Assembly (NCBI RefSeq): GCF_028009165.1
Contig: NC_079242.1
Location: forward strand, 3,100,001-3,164,000
Direction: 5' to 3'
DNA: 64,000 bases
From: Akanthomyces muscarius
Lineage: Eukaryota; Ascomycota; Sordariomycetes; Hypocreales; Cordycipitaceae
Below are positions 1,101-14,779 of this stretch, in pieces (position 1 is the stretch's first letter; every line of letters starts with the position of its first letter). A program made the translations under genes and the position numbers. Below the pieces are notes generated by a model. It had not been told where the DNA came from, ran no database searches, and saw nothing but the letters and a program-made list of their open reading frames with translations.

Positions 1101-2064
1101 TCAAGCCTTTGAGATAGTTGGTGGCGGTGGGCTTTTGTTCTGTCGCCATTCGATGAGGATAGCCAGGACGCGGGGTATGCTCAGCTCCGGCCAAGCTTTC
1201 TTCACAAACACGATGGACGTGTCCTGGTGGCACTGCCACAGCAAGAAATCGCTGAGACGATGCGTACTGCCTGTGCGGATGAGTAGGTCCAGCGGCGGGC
1301 TGTCCACCGTGTACATGTTTCTATCCAAAGCCGTAACTGTGTCGAATGTGGTGTCGCTAGCCGTAGCTTCCTGTGCGAGGCGCTCTCGCACGCTGCATTG
1401 TATCGCCGTCCGCATCTCAACCGTCGAGGCATATGCGAAGCAAATATTCACAATGGCACTGACAGAGCGGGTAAGCCGAACAAACACGGGTGAAAGAAAG
1501 GGAATGGGGAAAAGGGAAACGCACCTCTGGTTATGCCTTGTGCTCTCAGCGGCCCCTTCCAGTCTCTCTAGCACGCGTGGAGAAATGAGCTCGCGCTGCC
1601 CGCATATCCGGATCGATGCGTCGAGGTCGTGCGCAAGCTGCACCAGCTCGTCCAATCCCCCGACGACGATATCAAGGATAGTATCAACCTCTTCATCCGA
1701 TCGCTTGAAGTTTTCCACGCTGAAGACGTACAGGGACATCGCCCTGACGCCGCATCTAGTGCAGAGCTCGACATACTGGGCAGAACTTGCGATTAACATG
1801 GATACCCAAGGGGAAGGGCCAAAAAAAAAAGTTTTCACATCACACCTTTTTAAGCTGCCCCCATCCAGCCAGATATGTATTGCGAAGCGAAAGACCCCGA
1901 CGCCGTCCCCAGCGTCGGTTCCCGTCCAGGATATAGGCAACGTGCGCAGGGACTTGGCCGCGTCTTGCTGTCGCGACGGCGAGGCTAAAAAGCCACTGCT
2001 CGAAGCGACCCGTCTCTTGTGATGGAGGCTCGTTCCTCGGGGAGAGTGAACGCAGAAATCTCAT
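1101..2064 (-). CDS. cis-prenyltransferase, catalytic-subunit type (UPPS/Rer2 family)
   Basis: The family condenses isopentenyl diphosphate onto an allylic diphosphate to give cis (Z) double bonds; the housekeeping homologue makes dehydrodolichyl diphosphate at the ER. Spliced model: exons 2064-1846, 1775-1525 and 1458-1101 (introns of 70 and 66 nt), 275 aa, close to the usual 250-330. Visible motifs: HVAYILDGNRRWG with the catalytic Asp near residue 45, LYVFSVENFKR, NICFAYAS, RTGSTHRLSDFLLWQ and a terminal AW(P)E...EWRQ segment. Two oddities: where bacterial enzymes have GHxxG the protein reads TYLAG, and the metal-binding Glu of RTGGEHR is Thr. It has no C-terminal RxG motif, as expected of the catalytic partner in a two-subunit enzyme. 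A Nus1-like partner lies 2.6 kb upstream on the same strand. It may be a specialised paralogue; product chain length cannot be read from sequence. The family is certain, the pathway inferred. Confidence 0.87.
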
Positions 2065-4710
2065 CTCGTGCGTTTTCGTTCTCGTGGCGATCTCAGAGGT
2101 ATCCGCCTGTGCGCGGTGAAATCGACGCGGGAAAGTTGTCGACAGTTATCGACGCAAAGTTTTCGATGGTATAATAGTCTCACGTCCATCTTTTTCAGTC
2201 TCAGTGGTCAGCTGGAAAAAGCCTGTCAGTCTCGGATACTCGATGCGACTGGGGGGCTGAGCCACCTGTGTTTAATTGAAATGCCGTGTCTGAGCGCCCT
2301 TGTCAGGCAGCCTACTGAGTAAATCGTTATTTTACTGGTTCCAACTTATTGCATCAGATTCATCATTACACGACAGAGCCATCATTGTCTCGCAGTTGAA
2401 CACGACATGAAATTACTGTATGCATTTCCTAGCTTTATATAGTGTTTGTGTTGGGTGTGACAAAGATCGGCACCAGGTGCTGCGCTGCTAAATAGTACGA
2501 GATTCGCCGCCCATTAAAGATCAGCTGCGTGTGATCCAACGTCAAATTGGAATTTACCGAGTGTCGATCCGGTTCGACTGCTGCCACAAATCCCGGAACA
2601 GACTGAAACAAGTGCATCCCGTTGTTCGTTTTGCGCCGAGACGCTCCAAGTACATCATTTGAAGCCAAGCCCCGGTACAGGTGTTCACGATACACAGCGA
2701 GGTCCGCACGATGCGTGTTCACAAGCGTCCGCGATTCGTCAACGGGAATTACGCACTTCCTCGACGTACATGTGAATAAAGCACCAGAACCTCCTGAAGT
2801 AGGTCGGCATGGGATTGTGCGGCAGGGTGATATGGTCGAGAAAAGAGCCGATTCAGATAGGCCAAGTCAAACAGGGCGGCGCAAAAGCTCTTGTTCAAAT
2901 TCGAGTTGAACGCTGATGCAGATCCGAGCCACTACACAAGAGGAATTGGCATTTCTGGCGGCATGATTTTCCACATATACACACATGCCGATCTTTTGAA
3001 GGAAATGCTTCGGTGGCTCGTCAAGCTGTTGCAGATAGCAGTATCCGTGTAGAGGCTGCCGTAGTGCCTCTCTCATAGGTAGGTAGGTCGGTTGCCCAGC
3101 GGGGTTTATTGGCGACAGTCCAGTGCTTTCCTCGCCCATCTCGGTAGACGATGACTTGCTGGCCCGATGTGCTGGGGGCTCGTCAGCGCAGTCATGTCGA
3201 TGGTGGCTGATATTAGGGACGTACTGATTGATGCTTGGCCGTCTCGCCTTGTAAACGCGGACACGCTCAAAATGTTGATAGAGGTCTGACGTCCCCAGAG
3301 ATGAATGTGCTTTGAACTAGGACACTCCTGCGTCATGATGCAATCTTAGTCAATGCAAGTGATGACATGTCGGCGTGCTGTGGTACGTGCCTCTGCCTTT
3401 GTCCATCTGGTCCTGCCAGCTGGCAGCCTGGCCTTCGGGAGCGAGCACCGCTTAGCTTGAAAGGAAGGAACAGCGCCGACGGATGGCATAAAACTCGCGT
3501 CTCGCCTTTCCTTTTCATTTTTTTTTCTTCCTCCTCAGATAATCATCAGTGCATTACTCACACACCGTCCTGTGAAATATCGACGCTCAAGAGGTCGACA
3601 TGGGGGTGGCCTCCTTCGAGAACTGCGTGAGGCATACTAACCCTCGAAGTGCCACTAGTCCGGTAGGTACCGCGGTACAATTTTTGGTTTCTTCTTCTCT
3701 TTTTGTCCCTGGTATCACACTGCCTCCAGGTGGCGAGTCTTCTCTTTCATTCTGTTCGAGGCTATATGCTGCGTCAGGAAGAAGGATCAACGATCAGTTC
3801 CTTGTGTACTCGACGCCCTCGGTCACCCTCCCTTTCGAAATTTGGTTTCTTTCTTCCACCGTATTGGTAGTCAGTAGCCTTGGTGAAAGCCTTCGAAATC
3901 GTCTTATGAAGTATCGACGTCAAGAGGTCGACATGTGAGGTCGAGGGCCAACGAGCTGGGCTTCGATGGACCGGCCGGGAGGAATCAGACTCACGACAAA
4001 CGAGACTAGAAAATGGCCGTTGTGAGGGGGGAATGAGCCTTTTTGTATTCGCACGAGAGAATCAGAGTTTTGCAAACTTTTTTTGTGGCGGCATTGTGGC
4101 AATGCTAGGACAGAGCGTGGCAGAATGGTGACGCAGTGTGACAAGATTAAAGTTGGTCGCATAGAAATATCGAGTTCGAGTCGATTGCCTTTCTTCTTCA
4201 ATATCCTCAGCTCCCCATCAATCCCACCGCTTGTCAATGCCAGTGCCTTTGTTCGCCAGAGCCTCTTTTCCTCCATATCTCTCTACGTGGTCTTTGTCGA
4301 ATTTGATCTTTCGATTTCCCACGCGGCATTGCGTCCCTGGCTACTGGTCGATTCCATGACGCCAACAGCGCCAATAAATGGTGGCTGCGCGGCTGTTTGT
4401 CTAAAACTTTTTCTGTTACCCTGGCGTCTGTCTAAGCGTCATCTCTGGTGCGAAACACCACTGTCCCGCAACGTAAACACTTACTTTTAGTTGTAGACCC
4501 ATAACCCTCATGCACACTTCTCGTTTCTCAGCTCATTCTTCATGAGCCACTCGCACTATGTTGTGGAGTGGACTGGAGTGTCTTGCGTAGAGTTCTTTGG
4601 CTCTCTTTATTGGTTGTGTTTTTGTTTTTATTTAAGTGGAATAACATGCGGAACATATTGTCACGCAGCCTGGGACATTCGAATTGTCAAACCCAGCTAC
4701 AAGCCAAGGC
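2065..4710. other. 2.6-kb spacer with broken coding-like pieces on the minus strand
   Basis: On the minus strand between about 3340 and 2435, several adjoining open stretches of 76-95 codons lie in different frames (3336-3106, 3139-2867, 2722-2435). Between them a further readable stretch at about 2895-2770 shifts frame. I could not join them with good splice sites and recognise no family. The rest (3340-4710) holds a pair of imperfect direct repeats and CT-rich tracts. It may be a decayed gene or chance open frames. Confidence 0.35.
3574..3935. repeat. Imperfect direct repeat pair, about 29 bp each
   Basis: Copies at 3574-3602 and 3908-3935 share a core containing AAGAGGTCGACATG and the preceding TATCGACG; they differ by one substitution and one inserted base. 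They bracket about 305 bp. The flanked segment has no transposase or recognisable LTR features. Confidence 0.6.
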
Positions 4711-5658
4711 CTACTTGCCGTGCCGCATTTCAGCATCGGCGTAATTCCGCAGCGCATGCGCGAACGCGACATAGCTGAACTTGCCGTTGTCGCGAAGGAA
4801 CTCCATCTCTGCCTGCTGTAGATGCCAGGGTGGGTAGCCCGACAGCTTCAGCTCTGGCCTGAACAAGACGATAAGGTCTGGTGCAGGCATGACCAGCGAG
4901 TGTAACTGCTCGGCAACCGGGCCAACAGATATCTCTTCAACGGCGATATTTCCACACTTGACCTGCTCAGCGAAGGCCTCTGTGACATCGCCCATTGCAC
5001 GGCGTCCGTCATCCTCGGATATTAGGTAGATGATCAGGCTTGGTGGTCTGCCGTCATGGTCCTCCTTGTCCAGCGACAGCTTGCCTTCCAAATAAACCGA
5101 CACTCGATGCGTCTGGTTTGGGACTAATGCCTTGATTCTGAGACTGGCAAAAACGTGAAATAGTGCGGCATGGTGCTTCAAAATTCCTACAATTGTTGTC
5201 AGAACAGTAAATTCGTCGTCGCGCCTGCGAAGCGAAAACTCACCTCGCTCATCGTAGATTGAGATGGTAGGGATCCCAGCCGCAGCAGACCATGCCGCAA
5301 ACTCGGCAGCCTCTTGGATAAGCTTGTTCGAATCAGTCTTCTCTGCAGAGATTTCGGCGTTCATGATCGCGCTTAGATGCTTCGGCACCTTGCTAAGCGC
5401 CGATACCATTGCGGCGATACTGGTCGCGGTTGGCGCCATTCGAGCCTGGTACCTGTACTTGGCAGAGTTCTTCAATCTGCGCGCGCCAAGATATGAGGCT
5501 GCACAACTACTGATGATGCCATTGAGCGGTCGTGAGAGAAGTCTGATGCTTCGGCCCGCGGGCTCTGGCCTGCTGGAAGGCATCGTTAGGTACAATGTGC
5601 CAATGGGTCGTCCTAAAGTATCTAGATCTTGTTGTATGATGGATGCCATGACTTCCAC
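4711..5658 (-). CDS. Nus1/NgBR-like cis-prenyltransferase partner subunit
   Basis: Nus1 (NgBR) subunits have the cis-prenyltransferase fold but lack the catalytic DGN motif; they activate and anchor the catalytic subunit at the ER. Model: exons 5658-5244 and 5186-4711 around a 57-nt stop-free intron (GTGAGT...TTGTAG), 296 aa. Removing it gives YDERGILK, matching the family's YDxxGxxK. Other matches: KVPKHLSAIM (about residues 90-100), EFAAWSAAAGIPTISIYD, and PDLIVLFRPELKLSGYPPWHLQQAEM near the C-terminus. The last residues, ADAEMRHGK, keep the C-terminal RxG motif that NgBR-type subunits supply to the active site. No confident N-terminal membrane helix is visible, so an upstream exon could be missing or it may be soluble. 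It lies on the same strand as the catalytic cis-prenyltransferase and diverges from the MFS gene across a 546-bp shared promoter. It could instead be the housekeeping Nus1, but linkage to a terpene cyclase favours a specialised copy. Confidence 0.8.
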   Translation of the reverse strand: MEVMASIIQQDLDTLGRPIGTLYLTMPSSRPEPAGRSIRLLSRPLNGIISSCAASYLGARRLKNSAKYRYQARMAPTATSIAAMVSALSKVPKHLSAIMNAEISAEKTDSNKLIQEAAEFAAWSAAAGIPTISIYDERGEFSLRRRDDEFTVLTTIVGILKHHAALFHVFASLRIKALVPNQTHRVSVYLEGKLSLDKEDHDGRPPSLIIYLISEDDGRRAMGDVTEAFAEQVKCGNIAVEEISVGPVAEQLHSLVMPAPDLIVLFRPELKLSGYPPWHLQQAEMEFLRDNGKFSYVAFAHALRNYADAEMRHGK

Positions 5659-6204
5659 GTTAAAAAACTGCCGTGGAAGAAATCAGGCGGTTCTATAATT
5701 ACTTTGCTATTAATCGTCGATGTGAGACTAGGCCCAAGCACTGAACACGGTGTGACTTTGATGCCAGCAGTGAGTAACGCTCGTAATTCCCAGCAAGAAC
5801 AGAGGGACTAGATAGTTCCACTCTCTTCTTTTTTGGGGGGAGAGGGAGGGGGGTCATCGTCTATCTACTGGTATTGGCATACTCGGTATTGGATGCCCCT
5901 GTCAATTGTGGCGGTCCTGTCACGGCTGAGTTGAGTCGTCCTCGCATCGCCGACCCGCAGCATGTCTCGGAAAGCGAGTTCCTGCAGCGTACACGACTTG
6001 ATTTGTAAATTGGACCGAAACATATATCCAAGTCATTTTGCACGCAAGGAATTGACTGTCGTGGTAATGGGAAGTTGGTATCATTAAGGTCTCATACCAC
6101 TGGGACTGATTACAATGGGCACTTTTCGGCGCTCTTAGCTTGTGTGACCTCGCTCTTCGCTCCTGTAGCTTATGCATCTCTATTTGAACACACTTCCTGG
6201 TACC
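5659..6204. promoter_or_regulatory. Divergent promoter region, Nus1-like / MFS transporter
   Basis: This 546-bp gap separates two divergently transcribed genes and must hold both promoters. It contains a G-rich tract at about 5835-5852. I see no clear inverted-repeat binding site for a cluster-specific Zn2Cys6 regulator and no such regulator gene in the window. Confidence 0.45.
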
Positions 6205-8151
6205 ATGATGATCAGAAAGAACAACGCGCAGGCTGACCCGCGGGTGCTGTGTGTCGATGCCTCTGAGTCTGATCGAGAGCGCATGAGCACGTGGCAACTT
6301 GCAATCATTCTCGGCTGGTAAGTCTCGCCTTGCCAAGGTACTCAATTAAGCTGCTGATAATTCGTCATGTATTCGCTAGTGTTGGAATAGGACTCTTTCT
6401 TTCCCTGATGGATGCTACTGTCGTAGCGACCATGTTGCTGGACATTACCAGTGACCTCGGGGGCTTTCAGAAATCACAATGGGTCGTGCTGTCTTATACA
6501 CTACTTGACGGCGGTCAGTAAACTCGTAGCAATTACACATGGGTGCACAGTAACTCGGAAGCTGATTGTCGACATAGGATTGGCCGTCTTCTTGGCCAGG
6601 TTGTCTGACATTGTAGGCCGAAAAGTTGTCATCTGTGCGTCCTTGGCTATTTTTCTCGCGGGCTCCATGGCCTGTGGCGCATCGCGAACGCTGAATCAGC
6701 TTATCGGGTTTCGCGCTCTGCAAGGTGCTGGCGCCGCTGGCCTCTATGCAACTTCGCTCGTTGTCTACTTGGAGATGGCACCGCCGCGACACATCATACT
6801 CATGTTTGCGGTCGTTGGCGGTATTGTTGCCCTGGCAGGAGTGGCAGGGCCAATCGTTGGAGGCCTGCTTGCTACCCACGTGAACTGGCGTTTTGCCTTT
6901 TGGATAAAGTAGGCTCCATTACGCTCGTAAGAGACTGCATATGAACGTGCGCGTTACTGATACTTTTCTAGCGGCCCATGTGCCTTTGTCGCCCTCCTGT
7001 TGCTGATGCTACTTTGGCGGGAGAACGATGCCCATAAGAGTCCCCGGGCGAATTTGAGTATTTGCAATCTGGACTTCATAGGTGCTATTCTGATTTTAGC
7101 CGGTGTTACTTTGCCCATTTTCATCGCTAGCCAGGCCTCGGCTGGGGTGTATGCATGGTCCAGTCCCACCACCATCTCCGTTCTCGTCGTCTCAGTGGTG
7201 ATGTGGATTTGCCTCATCGCATGGCAGCGGTACATATCTAAAACTCCTCGCTTCGCCAATATGTTCCCGCAACTTCCTTGGGAGGTTCTTTCCAATAGAA
7301 TTCTGTTGGCTGCTCTAATGTGCGTATGATGTTCCATCAGCCCTATAATACGACTCGAACCTTAACCCGAACAGCGACACTATACTTGCGAGCCATGTCC
7401 TATTTGTGGCCATTTTTCATATTCCAATCCGTGCTCAAATAACAGAGCTCTACGACGCCGTTCAATCTGGCCTTTTGCTATTGCCGCTCCTTGGCAGCAG
7501 CGCAGTGGGGGCAGCAAGTGCTGGAATCATCTCTCACAGAAAGAACTTCACGTTTTGGGTCATGGGTATGTCAAGTATCCTCATGATAGTTGCGTCTGTT
7601 TTGCTTTCCCAGCTCCCGGAGTCCACTTCTTCTCTACCAGCGCAGAGGGGCTATCTGGCCATACTAGGGCTGGGCGCAGGTATGAATATAGCCACAACGA
7701 CGCTGCTGGCCGCCTTGCACTCGGAAATTGAAAACCACGGTATGCAAGCCCAACACCGGCTCTCCCGGCCCCTCCACTGTACCAAAAGGCTAACCAAGCT
7801 GAAGCGGTTGCCCAAGGCATCATTGCGCAGATGAGGATCGCTGGGGGAACTATTGGGGTGGCAATTAGCTTCATCGTGCTCCATGTTCGAGTGACGCACG
7901 AGTTGCAGGGCGATTTTACTCCCGCGCAGCTGCGAGACTTCTACCAGTCGCCTCTCTCTACCAGTTCATTTACCGTCTCCCAGTTACTTCTTGCACGACG
8001 CGCATATATCGCTGCCTTCACCGATATCATGCGGGTGTCGATCGGCATATCTGGAGCCTGCTTTCTAGCATCGCTCTTTGTGTGGCAGAAGCAGCCGGCT
8101 AGTATACAGAAAAAGCTAGAAGACATGGAGGCGTACTTTGGAACAAGATGA
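6205..8151 (+). CDS. MFS drug:H+ antiporter-like exporter (DHA14/DHA2 type)
   Basis: Predicted plasma-membrane proton antiporter exporting small molecules. Six exons: 6205-6317, 6380-6513, 6578-6908, 6972-7319, 7375-7739 and 7799-8151 (introns of 55-64 nt), 547 aa, normal for a 14-helix transporter. Visible: first helix GLFLSLMDATVVATML, cytosolic motif A LARLSDIVGRK, motif B-like IGFRALQGAGAAGL and antiporter motif C GVAGPIVGGLL followed by NWRFAFWIN. The start at 6205 gives a 37-residue hydrophilic N-terminus before the first helix; a second ATG at 6283 would also work. It converges on the terpene cyclase with only 157 bp between stop codons, and shares a promoter region with the Nus1-like gene. 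That supports a role in exporting the cluster product or in self-protection; the substrate is unknown. Confidence 0.9.
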
Positions 8152-8308
8152 ATGTGGAAACATTCGATTTGCAGTTGATAAGGGTCGGAGCAACCAGTCA
8201 AGGCATGTGCGATCATATGCACGAAGTTTCAACGCTGAGTGTAGCTCATGATACGTATGAAAGGATGATGGCTGAAGTTGCAATTTCTAGTTCTAGTAGA
8301 ATATTTTT

Positions 8309-9478
8309 CTATTTAAAATACTTTTGATGAATGGAAAAATAACCATGCAAAATTTCTTCACACTCCTTCTCAAAGGCGTCATCCAGCGCCACAAGTGGTA
8401 GCGTCTCTTCCAGCACTTCCCGGACAAGATCCGCCACGGGCCCTTTGCTACTATATCTCTTACACGTGCATTGCCATGTCGCAAATCCAGAAATGAGCAA
8501 AAGATAGCTTCGGGCCATCTTCTTGACATTGTGCGACACGCAGGAATCGACGAGAAGCTCATCCGCAAGAAGTTCTGCCTTCATCTCAAACTGCATGAGC
8601 TTGCGGCGACACTGCGACAGCGCTCGTCTCTCGTCACAATCCAGCTGCCGAAGGAAGATTATCATGCTGGAGCAAGGATCCGTGTTACTCGAAACGCGCT
8701 CAACTGTCTCTTTGGGCCAGCTCAGAATGTCATTGCACAACGTCATGGCGGCCGTGCTCACAGCATCTAGGCACTGGAGACGGGCAGCATCGTTGGTCGA
8801 CAGCTTGAGCCCCAGAACAAAAGCCAAACCGGGCATCATTATGCTGCGACAAAATGTGTAAGCAGAGTTAACATTCTTTGCATGGGAAATGAAGGGATCC
8901 TACGAGCAGGGAAAGTCGTATAGTCGAATTGGAAATAGCTCAGCAAATGAATCTTGTGTCACAGGCAAAACGGAGGAGAATAACTTCAGGCTCCGAGCGT
9001 GGAGAAGAGCAGTCTTGACAACGCCTGCTGATGATAATAAATTTTGTAGCAGAACAGAACTTGTAATTTTAATTATCGCTTTCTTTGCTTGCCAGGAGAG
9101 ATGACCAATATGGCTATCTTGCACATCTTGACTGGCTACATATCTTTAGTATCTGATCGTGGCAGTGAATTACTGTGTGCACCTACTGTCAAAGACGCAA
9201 ATCATGTCCAGTAGCTTGACAGCACTTGAGATGCGCTGTGGCAGCGCCTCAGGGATGGCGATAGAAATACCATGGTTCGGCGAGGCGTCACCCAAGTATT
9301 CCTCGCCTTCAACAGACTGAGTCGGCAGACCGGCCGATTTCCAGGTATCAATCAGCTTCTGGGAGACTTGTTTTGCAATATTGTTGTATTTGCTAGTGCG
9401 AATGGGGAGCGAGGTAGTATTTGCTGCCCAGACCGGCAGTTCCTGGTCATAAGACTGTGAGTACACGAAGGCCGGCAT
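8309..9478 (-). CDS. Class I terpene cyclase, stand-alone (fusicoccadiene-cyclase-domain-like)
   Basis: Ionises an allylic diphosphate with a Mg2+ cluster and cyclises it. Model: exons 9478-9187, 9126-8904 and 8843-8309 (two 60-nt introns), 349 aa, the size of the cyclase domain alone. Splicing restores the motifs in order: NHGISIAIPEALPQRI (about residue 70), the Asp-rich motif read as FDNVQD (about residues 97-102), FPIRLYD whose Arg lies 44 residues before the NSE motif (pyrophosphate sensor), the NSE/DTE motif NDILSWPKE, and the C-terminal RY pair in CKRYS. The pattern resembles the N-terminal cyclase half of fungal chimeric prenyltransferase-cyclases (PaFS type), but there is no downstream prenyltransferase domain, so the substrate must come from another enzyme. 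The usual DDxxD has Asn at its second position, which depends on the chosen acceptor at 9127. Product unknown. Confidence 0.85.
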
Positions 9479-12307: not shown

Positions 12308-14779
12308 ATGCCTCCCAAGCGGAAGGCCGGCGGCAATGTGCAAGGGGGGGCCAAAACTGGCCGGGCTTCGCGCATGAGCACGCCAGGTGCAGCGACTCCT
12401 CGAAGCATCGGTAGCAACGATGACATTGAAGAAGACGACGCACCGATCGATGAAGTCCTCGAGGCAGATATCGACAAGAACATAGACCGTTTCTCTCTTA
12501 GTCGATACCAGAAGCGGCACAATGTTAAAGACCCGCTCACGCACATCTTTGGTGACAATGACTATTCGTATCTTGTCCTTAAAAAGGACCACCGGAACAG
12601 ACCGCTATGGATAGATCCTCAAAAGGGTCGTATCATCCTCGAAAGCTTCAATCCGCTGGCTGAGCAGGCGCAAGATTTCCTCATTACAATTTCAGAGCCG
12701 CTGTCGCGACCGACCTTTATGCACGAATACGCCCTCACCATGCACAGCCTGTACGCTGCCGTATCTGTAGGCCTGTCTCCAAAGGATATTATCAATACTC
12801 TCGAAAGATTTCTTAAGACACCACTGCCCGACGAAATCCGAGCGTTCATCACCAGCTGTACACAAACATATGGCAAAGTAAAACTTGTGTTGAAAAATAC
12901 CAAGTATTATGTCGAAAGCCCTGACCCGGAAATGCTGCAAATGCTGCTCAAGAACCCGAAGATTGGCCCGCTCCGCGTCCAAGGAACAGAAGAGATTACA
13001 ACCACAGCAGCGCCCAAGATTGGCGGCTTGGTCATCCCTGGCACGAAGAATGCTGCAGGTGTCAAACAGGCGAATGGGCTTCAGACGGGCGAAACCGAGC
13101 AAGGACCGGTTCCGCAAGGACAAGCCCAGGCAACGCTGGATGACGACGACGACGATGATCAAGAGGTCACACACGCCTTCGAAATCGCGGACAAGGATGT
13201 GGAAACAGTGCAAAAAGAGTGCCTCAACCTTGGCTATCCGGTTCTGGAAGAATACGATTTCCGACGCGACGAAGCAAATCCCAATCTCGATATTGATCTG
13301 CGACCTGGCACGCAAATTCGACCATATCAGGAAAAGAGCCTGAGCAAGATGTTCGGTAACGGCAGAGCGAAGAGTGGTCTTATCGTTTTGCCATGCGGCG
13401 CCGGCAAGACTTTGGTTGGCATCACAGCTGCATGCACCATCAAGAAGGGCATCATTGTGCTTTGCACAAGCTCCATGTCAGTTGTGCAGTGGCGAAATGA
13501 ATTCTTGAAGTGGTCGAACATCAACCCTGATGACATTGTCGCCTTCACATCGGACTCGAAAGGCTCGGTATTCACAGGCAGTACTGGTATCATTGTTACT
13601 ACGTACTCCATGGTCACGCAATCGCGAGCGCGGTCCTATGATGCGGAAAAGATGATGAGGTTCCTCACCGGAAGAGAATGGGGTCTCATGCTACTCGACG
13701 AAGTGCACGTCGTGCCAGCGAACATTTTCCGAAAAGTTACTTCCTCCATCAAGACACACTCCAAGCTGGGTCTTACAGCTACGTTGCTGCGAGAAGACGA
13801 CAAGATTTCTGATCTCAACTTCCTCATTGGCCCCAAGCTGTTCGAAGCAAACTGGATGGAACTCTCAAAGCAAGGTCATATTGCTCGCGTGCAGTGCGCA
13901 GAGGTTTGGTGCGCCATGCCAACCGAGTTTTATGATGAATATCTGCGTGCGCCATCCCGCAAGAAGAACTTACTCTACATTATGAACCCACGCAAGTTCC
14001 AGGCCTGTCAATATCTCATCAACTACCACGAAGCCCGCGGAGATAAGATTATTGTCTTTTCTGATAATGTCTATGCCCTCAAGGCTTACGCATTAAAACT
14101 AGGCAAAGCCTTCATCTACGGCGGTACGGGTCAGGCTGAGCGACTGAAAGTGCTGGAAAACTTTCAGCACAATCCGCTTGTGAACACACTTTTCTTGTCG
14201 AAGATTGGTGATACCTCCCTGGACTTGCCCGAGGCTACTTGCCTTATCCAGATATCATCGCACTACGGTTCCCGACGCCAAGAAGCACAGCGCCTGGGAC
14301 GAATTTTGCGAGCCAAGAGACGTAACGACGAAGGCTTCAATGCGTTCTTCTATTCTCTGGTGTCTAAAGATACGCAAGAAATGTACTTCTCGTCGAAGAG
14401 ACAGGCCTTCCTCGTCGACCAAGGCTATGCGTTCAAGGTCATTACGCAGCTAGCCAACATTGAGCAGACGCCCGGGCTTGCGTTTGCGACTGCAGCAGAG
14501 CGTCGAGAGCTGTTGCAAAAGGTGTTGGTGGAGAACGAGGGCATGGAGGATGAAGACATCACGGATGATTTGTTCCACAGCGGCAGCATGGGACGCGCCA
14601 AGAAGAGAGTTCGGCGAACGGCGGGCACGCTGGGCGAGCTCAGCGGCGGCCAGGACATGGCATACATTGAACAGAACAAGAAGTTCAACGGTGGTCTTAA
14701 AAAGAAGGGCAAGAAGGAGAGCAATGCCTTTTTTAAGAAGATTGGTAGAGAGAATGCTCGCCGCGCGGCGGGTGAGTGA
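12308..14779 (+). CDS. SSL2: TFIIH DNA translocase/helicase XPB (Ssl2/Rad25)
   Basis: ATP-dependent 3'-5' translocase of TFIIH, which opens promoters for RNA polymerase II and opens DNA around lesions in nucleotide excision repair (nucleus). Single exon, 823 aa (yeast Ssl2 is 843). Order: Lys-rich basic N-terminus, XPB N-terminal domain ([23 protein letters not shown], quoted in part, near residue 60), acidic linker with a run of Asp near 278, Walker A LPCGAGKT at about 361-368, DEVH box at 464-467 followed by VVPA, motif [16 protein letters not shown] including the RED element, then motif V/VI with [21 protein letters not shown] (partial). Canonical DEVHTIPA reads DEVHVVPA, a mild change. 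Likely essential and constitutive; no sign of disruption. Confidence 0.97.

What the first reader, a model, noticed from the sequence alone, without database searches (positions are those of the whole stretch)
1101..9478. Putative terpenoid cluster fed by a dedicated two-subunit cis-prenyltransferase
Four adjacent genes encode a catalytic-type cis-prenyltransferase, a Nus1/NgBR-like activating subunit, a 14-TM MFS exporter and a stand-alone class I terpene cyclase (seen from motifs). The two halves of eukaryotic cis-prenyltransferase are normally unlinked housekeeping genes making dolichol, and fungal terpene cyclases normally draw on trans-prenyl diphosphates, often from a fused or neighbouring trans-prenyltransferase. 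None is present here. The inference is that the pair makes a Z-configured prenyl diphosphate that the cyclase uses, and that the transporter exports the product. I know of no described fungal pathway with this set, but I could not search.
Basis: partly seen in the sequence, partly recalled or inferred. Interest (0 to 1): 0.88.

Follow-up and report, generated by a model that had tools for sequence, protein, structure and literature searches.

The report
Fungal terpene cluster with cis-prenyltransferase pair
The insect-killing fungus Akanthomyces muscarius carries, side by side, extra copies of the two genes that normally make dolichol, a transporter gene and a terpene-cyclase gene; the gene pair is predicted to make short cis-prenyl building blocks that would feed the cyclase, a supply route known from tomato, and an enzyme assay could test it.

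Summary
Confirmed: window 1101-9478 holds a Rer2/DHDDS-type cis-prenyltransferase (CPT2), a Nus1-like partner (NUS1L), an MFS transporter with 14 hydrophobic segments, and a stand-alone class I cyclase (TC), all with intact modelled frames. The genome is Akanthomyces muscarius and has separate, canonical RER2 and NUS1 genes, so this is not the housekeeping dolichol pair. New here: CPT2 lacks the three-residue helix-3 insertion of long-chain eukaryotic enzymes (87 proteins parsed: 16 lack it, five CPT2-group and 11 bacterial-type). Deleting it from human DHDDS is reported to shorten the product. CPT2 groups with eukaryotic enzymes, so the loss is likely derived. NUS1L keeps the C-terminal RxG motif but shows no membrane anchor. 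TC is nearest to cyclase domains normally fused to a trans-prenyltransferase; none is fused here. Committed reading: CPT2/NUS1L makes a short or medium Z-prenyl diphosphate for TC. Against it: no co-expression data, no shared upstream motif, altered first metal motif in TC (DTSQD), no scored P450 within 58 kb, MFS genes common in the genome, and patchy relatives (C. militaris: CPT2 and TC; A. lecanii: CPT2 and NUS1L with damaged motifs; Beauveria: only NUS1L found). The feeding step is inferred, not shown.

The parts
1101..2064 (-). CPT2: catalytic cis-prenyltransferase paralog, 3 exons (2064-1846, 1775-1525, 1458-1101), 275 aa
   Evidence: PF01255 142.3 bits; 66% to C. militaris P0004; AlphaFold model of P0004 pLDDT 88.4 with cis-PT fold
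1912..1926 (-). CPT2 catalytic DGNRR motif
   Evidence: D, R, R identical in the 12 of 14 aligned rows that cover it
1620..1697 (-). CPT2 helix alpha-3 segment, which ends without the 3-residue insertion of long-chain enzymes
   Evidence: alignment A1; spacing count; coordinates by arithmetic from the model
4711..5649 (-). NUS1L: Nus1/NgBR-like partner, 2 exons (5649-5244, 5186-4711), 293 aa; the start may instead be Met23 (about 5583)
   Evidence: matches LMH87_004162; close relative P0122 matches yeast NUS1 structure 6jcn E 3.8e-24
4717..4725 (-). C-terminal RxG motif (RHG of RHGK) of NUS1L
   Evidence: role of RxG from PMC7573591 passages
6205..8151 (+). MFS transporter, 6 exons, 547 aa, 14 hydrophobic segments, DHA2/EmrB-like (126.5 bits, below that model's cut-off of 230.2)
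8309..9478 (-). TC: stand-alone class I terpene cyclase, 3 exons (9478-9187, 9135-8904, 8843-8309), 352 aa, no fused prenyltransferase domain
   Evidence: C. militaris ortholog matches astellifadiene, fusicoccadiene and stellatatriene synthases over their cyclase part
8708..8734 (-). TC second metal motif NDILSWPKE (intact NSE triad)
   Evidence: motif definition in PMC8307374 passages
9125..9190 (-). TC first Asp-rich motif DTSQD (split by intron 1; DDNQD in C. militaris)
5650..6204 (.). 555-bp intergenic stretch shared by the divergent NUS1L and MFS genes
   Evidence: no 8-mer shared with the other two upstream regions

Best explanation
In Akanthomyces muscarius, CPT2 and NUS1L, a cis-prenyltransferase pair additional to the genome's own Rer2 and Nus1 genes, likely form a soluble heteromer that would make a short- to medium-chain prenyl diphosphate with cis double bonds, which the neighbouring stand-alone class I cyclase would cyclise and the MFS transporter would export. 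Shown: the four genes with intact modelled frames, the second canonical copies, the conserved catalytic residues, the RxG tail, the missing helix-3 insertion, the lack of a strongly hydrophobic N-terminal segment in NUS1L, and the affinity of TC with cyclase domains of fused synthases. Inferred: heteromer formation, solubility, product length, use of a Z substrate by TC, and export. The likely chemistry is that CPT2 takes an all-E primer (FPP or GGPP from the general pool), adds one or a few Z units with NUS1L completing the active site through its RxG tail, and TC ionises the resulting 2-cis C20-C25 diphosphate.
For: Second RER2 (G000:C5) and NUS1 (G000:C4) genes with canonical features. CPT2 spacing from SxEN to the G[QD] motif is 34 residues, against 37 in the housekeeping RER2 and 69 other hits (87 of 139 sequences parsed; 16 at 34, 70 at 37, 1 at 38; 52 not parsed, 17 of which are TC or NUS1-type). 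The same gap is seen in alignment A1 (absent in the 4 CPT2 rows, filled in the 10 others). That insertion (EKE in human DHDDS) lengthens UPPS products, and its deletion shortens the DHDDS product (PMC7573591 passages). In the tree, CPT2 of A. muscarius and C. militaris are a 100/100 pair on the side with the named fungi (34 rows, 99/98), opposite 14 rows with the named bacteria; of those 34 rows 31 have spacing 37, P0035 was not parsed and 2 are CPT2, so the loss is likely derived. D34, R37, R38, E81, N82, K84, R85, R205, R211 and S213 equivalents are kept in A. muscarius CPT2. NUS1L ends RHGK and its best 19-residue hydropathy in the first 130 residues is 1.11, against 2.07 in the second NUS1. 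The best solved matches of the TC ortholog are di/sesterterpene synthases known to be fused to a prenyltransferase (fusion recalled), with no PF00348 match on this contig. C. militaris has both CPT2 and TC orthologs. Plant precedent: tomato CPT2-TPS21 (PMC4364678, abstract and one section).
Confidence: 0.45

Rival explanations
1. CPT2/NUS1L makes a polyprenol (medium to long chain) for some specialised lipid, and TC independently uses ordinary E-FPP or E-GGPP; they are neighbours without being one pathway.
For: Heteromeric pairs are described as long-chain enzymes in the passages read. The genome has 6 trans-prenyltransferase loci that could supply TC. NUS1L occurs in Beauveria and C. javanica where CPT2 and TC were not found, so the genes may part. 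No shared upstream motif.
Against: CPT2 lacks the long-chain insertion and NUS1L lacks the membrane anchor expected for a dolichol-type enzyme. C. militaris, in another genus, has both CPT2 and TC.
Confidence: 0.3
2. The locus is a relic: a formerly working terpenoid cluster that is decaying in the Akanthomyces/Beauveria lineage and makes little or nothing now.
For: TC has DTSQD where C. militaris has DDNQD. A. lecanii has Cys at the R205 position of CPT2 and has lost the RxG tail of NUS1L. CPT2 and TC were not found in Beauveria. No recognisable tailoring genes nearby.
Against: All four A. muscarius frames stay open across the 10 modelled introns, most catalytic residues, the NSE triad and RxG are kept, and TC is 60% identical to its C. 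militaris ortholog over its full length.
Confidence: 0.2
3. These are the housekeeping dolichol genes, brought together by chance.
For: They belong to the Rer2 and Nus1 families.
Against: Canonical RER2 and NUS1 genes lie on C5 and C4. The C5 copy groups with Metarhizium rileyi RER2 at 100/100, CPT2 does not.
Confidence: 0.02

Closest known systems
Tomato chromosome 8 cluster: NDPS1 / SlCPT2 with TPS19-21 and CYP71BN1 (PMC4364678)
   Same: A cis-prenyltransferase gene clustered with a terpene synthase; CPT2 makes nerylneryl diphosphate, and CPT2 with TPS21 gave lycosantalene in E. coli (abstract).
   Different: Plant, no Nus1-like partner mentioned in the parts read, a plant-type TPS, and a P450 present. 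Here a fungal Rer2-type enzyme with a Nus1-like gene and a fungal-type cyclase.
Fungal chimeric terpene synthases (PTTS; fusicoccadiene, astellifadiene, stellatatriene synthase)
   Same: TC's ortholog is nearest to their cyclase part, and TC shares the ND..SWPKE form of the second motif with a PTTS quoted in PMC8307374 passages.
   Different: PTTS carry a fused trans-prenyltransferase domain; TC ends after the cyclase domain and has a cis-prenyltransferase pair as neighbour.
Rer2/Nus1 and DHDDS/NgBR dolichol synthase
   Same: Same two subunit families, catalytic residues, RxG tail.
   Different: CPT2 lacks the helix-3 insertion, NUS1L shows no anchor, and they are extra to the canonical pair.
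Bacterial short-chain cis-prenyltransferases: Rv1086 Z-FPP synthase; cis-geranylfarnesyl synthase of Streptomyces clavuligerus (8wu7)
   Same: Same fold; 31-32% identity to the C. militaris CPT2 model (names from the listings only). Rv1086 aligns without the insertion.
   Different: Short-chain enzymes are described as homodimers; CPT2 groups with eukaryotic enzymes.

Membership tests
cis-prenyltransferase, catalytic subunit | PF01255 domain with catalytic Asp and pyrophosphate-binding Arg residues | tested here: met
   142.3 bits; D34, R37, R38, R85, R205, R211, S213 equivalents kept; GH His and RTSG altered
Long-chain eukaryotic (dolichol-type) cis-prenyltransferase | 3-residue insertion in helix alpha-3 | tested here: not met
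   absent from CPT2 and its relatives P0002-P0004 and P0065, present in RER2 and 69 other hits
Short-chain cis-prenyltransferase | C10-C25 product | not testable with these tools
   needs an enzyme assay; the tunnel-end residue is Ala and gives no support
Nus1/NgBR partner | C-terminal RxG motif on a pseudo-cis-prenyltransferase domain | tested here: met
   RHGK tail; relative P0122 hits NUS1 structures first, E 3.8e-24
Nus1/NgBR partner | N-terminal transmembrane anchor | tested here: not met
   best 19-residue hydropathy 1.11 (P0122 0.99) against 2.07 for the second NUS1 and 1.8 for P0137; the start codon is uncertain
Class I terpene cyclase (PTTS cyclase type) | DDxxD/E motif | tested here: inconclusive
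   DTSQD in A. muscarius, DDNQD in C. militaris
Class I terpene cyclase (PTTS cyclase type) | (N/H)DxxSxxxE motif | tested here: met
   NDILSWPKE
PTTS chimeric synthase | fused trans-prenyltransferase domain | tested here: not met
   ORF ends after the cyclase; no PF00348 match on contig C2
Fungal biosynthetic gene cluster | co-expression of members | not testable with these tools
   no expression data held; shared upstream 8-mers 0
Fungal biosynthetic gene cluster | linkage conserved in relatives | tested here: inconclusive
   A. lecanii CPT2 and NUS1L on same-length contig; B. bassiana NUS1L model runs into the gene that follows CPT2 here; no DNA of other fungi could be read

The most novel reading that the evidence does not exclude
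This is a fungal terpenoid pathway fed by a dedicated two-subunit cis-prenyltransferase: a dolichol synthase duplicated, lost its chain-lengthening insertion and membrane anchor, and replaced the fused trans-prenyltransferase of a di/sesterterpene cyclase, giving cyclic terpenes from Z-configured precursors and the first heteromeric short-chain cis-prenyltransferase.
Probability: 0.38. Interest if true: 0.85.

Novelty: new variant of a known kind. Interest (0 to 1): 0.62.

Why it matters
If true, fungi evolved cis-prenyl-fed terpenoids independently of tomato, and by recruiting a two-subunit dolichol enzyme. That would break the rule that heteromeric cis-prenyltransferases are long-chain enzymes, and give a natural test of how helix-3 length and membrane anchoring set product size. 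It would also point to terpene skeletons from Z substrates that genome-mining rules built on trans-prenyltransferases would miss. A. muscarius is used in biocontrol (abstract in listing) and C. militaris is produced as a food supplement (abstract in listing), so the product would be of practical interest.

Tried and rejected
Housekeeping-gene explanation: rejected by the second RER2 and NUS1. Horizontal gain of a bacterial enzyme, suggested by the missing insertion: disfavoured by the tree, with the caveat that CPT2 sits on a long branch (2.23), its exact place on the fungal side is unresolved, and the root is only the midpoint. Further cluster genes in the 2.6 kb spacer: no Pfam match in the three largest ORFs; smaller ORFs were not scanned. 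A P450 partner: none scored in the window or within 58 kb to its left (92 of 145 candidates scored). Shared upstream motif: none. MFS search of the genome scored only 9 of 481 candidates and did not reach the window's own MFS. AlphaFold of the C. militaris TC from a single sequence gave pLDDT 34.7 and was not used for any search. Fold comparison of CPT2 does not separate short-chain from long-chain enzymes. The TC protein search could not show fused synthases of about 700 aa, because candidates are limited to 0.55-1.75 times the query length. My first MFS model broke frame at exon 4 and was redone. Papers: 10 of 10 searches used. Eight of them (all but 25 and 35) looked for a fungal cis-prenyltransferase and terpene-cyclase cluster or for these genes in Cordyceps; I recognised none from titles and abstract starts. 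Four of these listings were capped (20 of 31, 20 of 365, 12 of 41, 12 of 112), and most subscription papers are not held.
Full report
Identity of the genome. The window is G000:C2:3100001-3164000, in a 36,193,312-base genome of 12 contigs. The NUS1L search returned LMH87_004162 of Akanthomyces muscarius on a contig of 5,386,820 bases, exactly the length of C2; the published assembly is 36.1 Mb (PMC10323777 abstract). A. muscarius belongs to Cordycipitaceae.

The four genes. On the minus strand lie TC (9478-8309), NUS1L (5649-4711) and CPT2 (2064-1101); MFS (6205-8151) is on the plus strand and shares a 555-bp upstream stretch with NUS1L. To the right come a proteasome-subunit-like ORF (from about 10240) and an XPB-like helicase ORF at 12308 (names recalled from the translations). 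To the left, outside the window, lie zinc-cluster regulator-like ORFs at about L011:7130-8843 (Pfam Zn_clus only 13.9 bits, below cut-off; motif read by eye) and a D-lactate-dehydrogenase-like ORF (name recalled).

Second copies. PF01255 gave 7 matches in the genome: two stretches of CPT2, one of NUS1L, three of a second Rer2-type gene on C5 and one of a second Nus1-type gene on C4. Spliced by eye, the C5 protein has DGNRRYAR, GHHRGF and RTSGVERLSD, and the C4 protein has a hydrophobic N-terminal segment (hydropathy 2.07) and ends RRGK. These are the likely dolichol genes, which removes the main objection to a dedicated pair.

CPT2. In alignment A1 (14 sequences), the four CPT2-type rows lack three columns that all 10 other fungal rows fill. 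Over all sequences held, 87 of 139 could be parsed: 70 have 37 residues between the two anchor motifs, 16 have 34, 1 has 38. The 16 are the five CPT2-group sequences (CPT2, P0002, P0003, P0004, P0065) and 11 others; ten of those 11 were put in the tree and all ten fall on the side of the named bacteria. Passages of PMC7573591 state that inserting three residues at this place lengthens UPPS products from C55 to C70, that deleting them from DHDDS shortens its product, and that heteromeric enzymes are long-chain while short- and medium-chain ones are homodimers. CPT2 thus combines a short/medium-chain feature with a heteromer-type partner. The tree puts CPT2 with the fungal rows (99/98 for the split of 34 from 14), so the insertion was probably lost rather than never gained; the branch is long and the root is the midpoint. 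Active-site residues are largely kept, with two changes shared with C. militaris, His to Tyr in the GH motif and RTSG to RTG[S/N]. The AlphaFold model of P0004 is good (pLDDT 88.4) and has the family fold, but does not discriminate chain length: Foldseek ranks DHDDS first, VIA-align ranks UppS and lavandulyl synthase slightly above.

NUS1L. The closest solved relatives of P0122 (83% identical to NUS1L over 92% of it) are NUS1 structures (yeast 6jcn E 3.8e-24). NUS1L keeps RHGK at the end. Its strongest hydropathy segment is 1.11, against 2.07 in the second NUS1, so an anchor is not predicted. Of 16 hits, named ones are A. muscarius, A. lecanii, C. javanica and eight Beauveria entries.

TC. The full-length C. 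militaris ortholog (P0001, 60%) is the only hit at E 0.01 or better; the search shares words and limits candidates to 0.55-1.75 of the query length, so long fused synthases could not appear. P0001's best solved relatives are di/sesterterpene synthases (E 6e-10 to 2e-5 for the first eight), known as chimeric enzymes (recalled; the family is described in PMC8307374 passages). TC has an intact NDILSWPKE but DTSQD in place of the DDNQD of C. militaris. Within the genome it has no close paralog (next best E 0.003, 26% identity). On C8 a cyclase match and a trans-prenyltransferase match lie 0.9 kb apart, the usual arrangement, which the window lacks.

Relatives and linkage. A. lecanii CPT2 (P0003) and NUS1L (P0124) lie on contigs of identical length, so almost surely the same contig. 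Both look damaged there: Cys at the R205 position, and the RxG tail replaced; annotation error is possible. The B. bassiana model P0133 fuses NUS1L to a protein 83% identical over 105 columns to the product of the minus-strand gene that follows CPT2 here. This shows the locus is syntenic and suggests, without proof, that CPT2 is missing between them. Against the reading: no CPT2 or TC was found in Beauveria or C. javanica, and no NUS1L in C. militaris. Annotation gaps are likely, since no A. muscarius CPT2 or TC was listed either.

Surroundings and regulation. No 8-mer is shared by the three upstream regions (0; 300 random triples from the window average 2.0). This is no evidence for co-regulation and does not exclude it. 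No expression data were available. No scored P450 lies in the window or within 58 kb to its left, and MFS genes are abundant (481 first-look candidates), so the transporter's membership is weakly supported.

Literature. Tomato has a cis-prenyltransferase and terpene synthase cluster making a nerylneryl-derived diterpene (PMC4364678 abstract), and its authors suggest such enzymes are evolutionary novelties (section read). In eight searches of the held PMC library I recognised no fungal counterpart among the titles and abstract starts listed, four of the lists being capped. One A. muscarius genome paper names antiSMASH hits in a passage I saw and does not name this locus there; its Table S2 was not seen.

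Verdict. The dedicated nature of the pair is well supported; the feeding of the cyclase is plausible, at about 0.45, and testable by assay.

Noticed in passing
L011:9488 to window 121 (minus strand): Asp-rich, apparently secreted protein gene; 83% identical over 105 columns to the C-terminal part of B. bassiana P0133, whose N-terminal part is NUS1L, so it marks the locus.
   Followed up: partly
L011 about 7130-8843 (G000:C2 about 3097130-3098843): Zinc-cluster-type regulator-like ORFs about 2.3 kb beyond the CPT2 stop; possible cluster regulator, Pfam support weak.
   Followed up: partly
A. lecanii P0003 and P0124: In A. lecanii RCEF 1005 the CPT2 first Arg of the RTSG motif is Cys and the NUS1L RxG tail is replaced by other residues, suggesting decay or annotation error.
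   Followed up: no
G000:C8:63145-65012: A Terpene_syn_C_2 match (two stops inside) and a polyprenyl_synt match close together on the same strand, looking like a conventional cyclase plus trans-prenyltransferase arrangement.
   Followed up: no
window about 3576-3602 and 3910-3935: A near-repeat of about 26 bases (TATCGACG..TCAAGAGGTCGACATG) in the spacer between CPT2 and NUS1L, seen by eye; the copies differ by one base of length, and the repeat finder did not list it.
   Followed up: partly
CPT2, A1 columns 66 and 332-333: Departures from all 10 other aligned enzymes: GH His to Tyr in the two CPT2 rows that cover it, RTSG to RTG[S/N] in all four; effect unknown.
   Followed up: no
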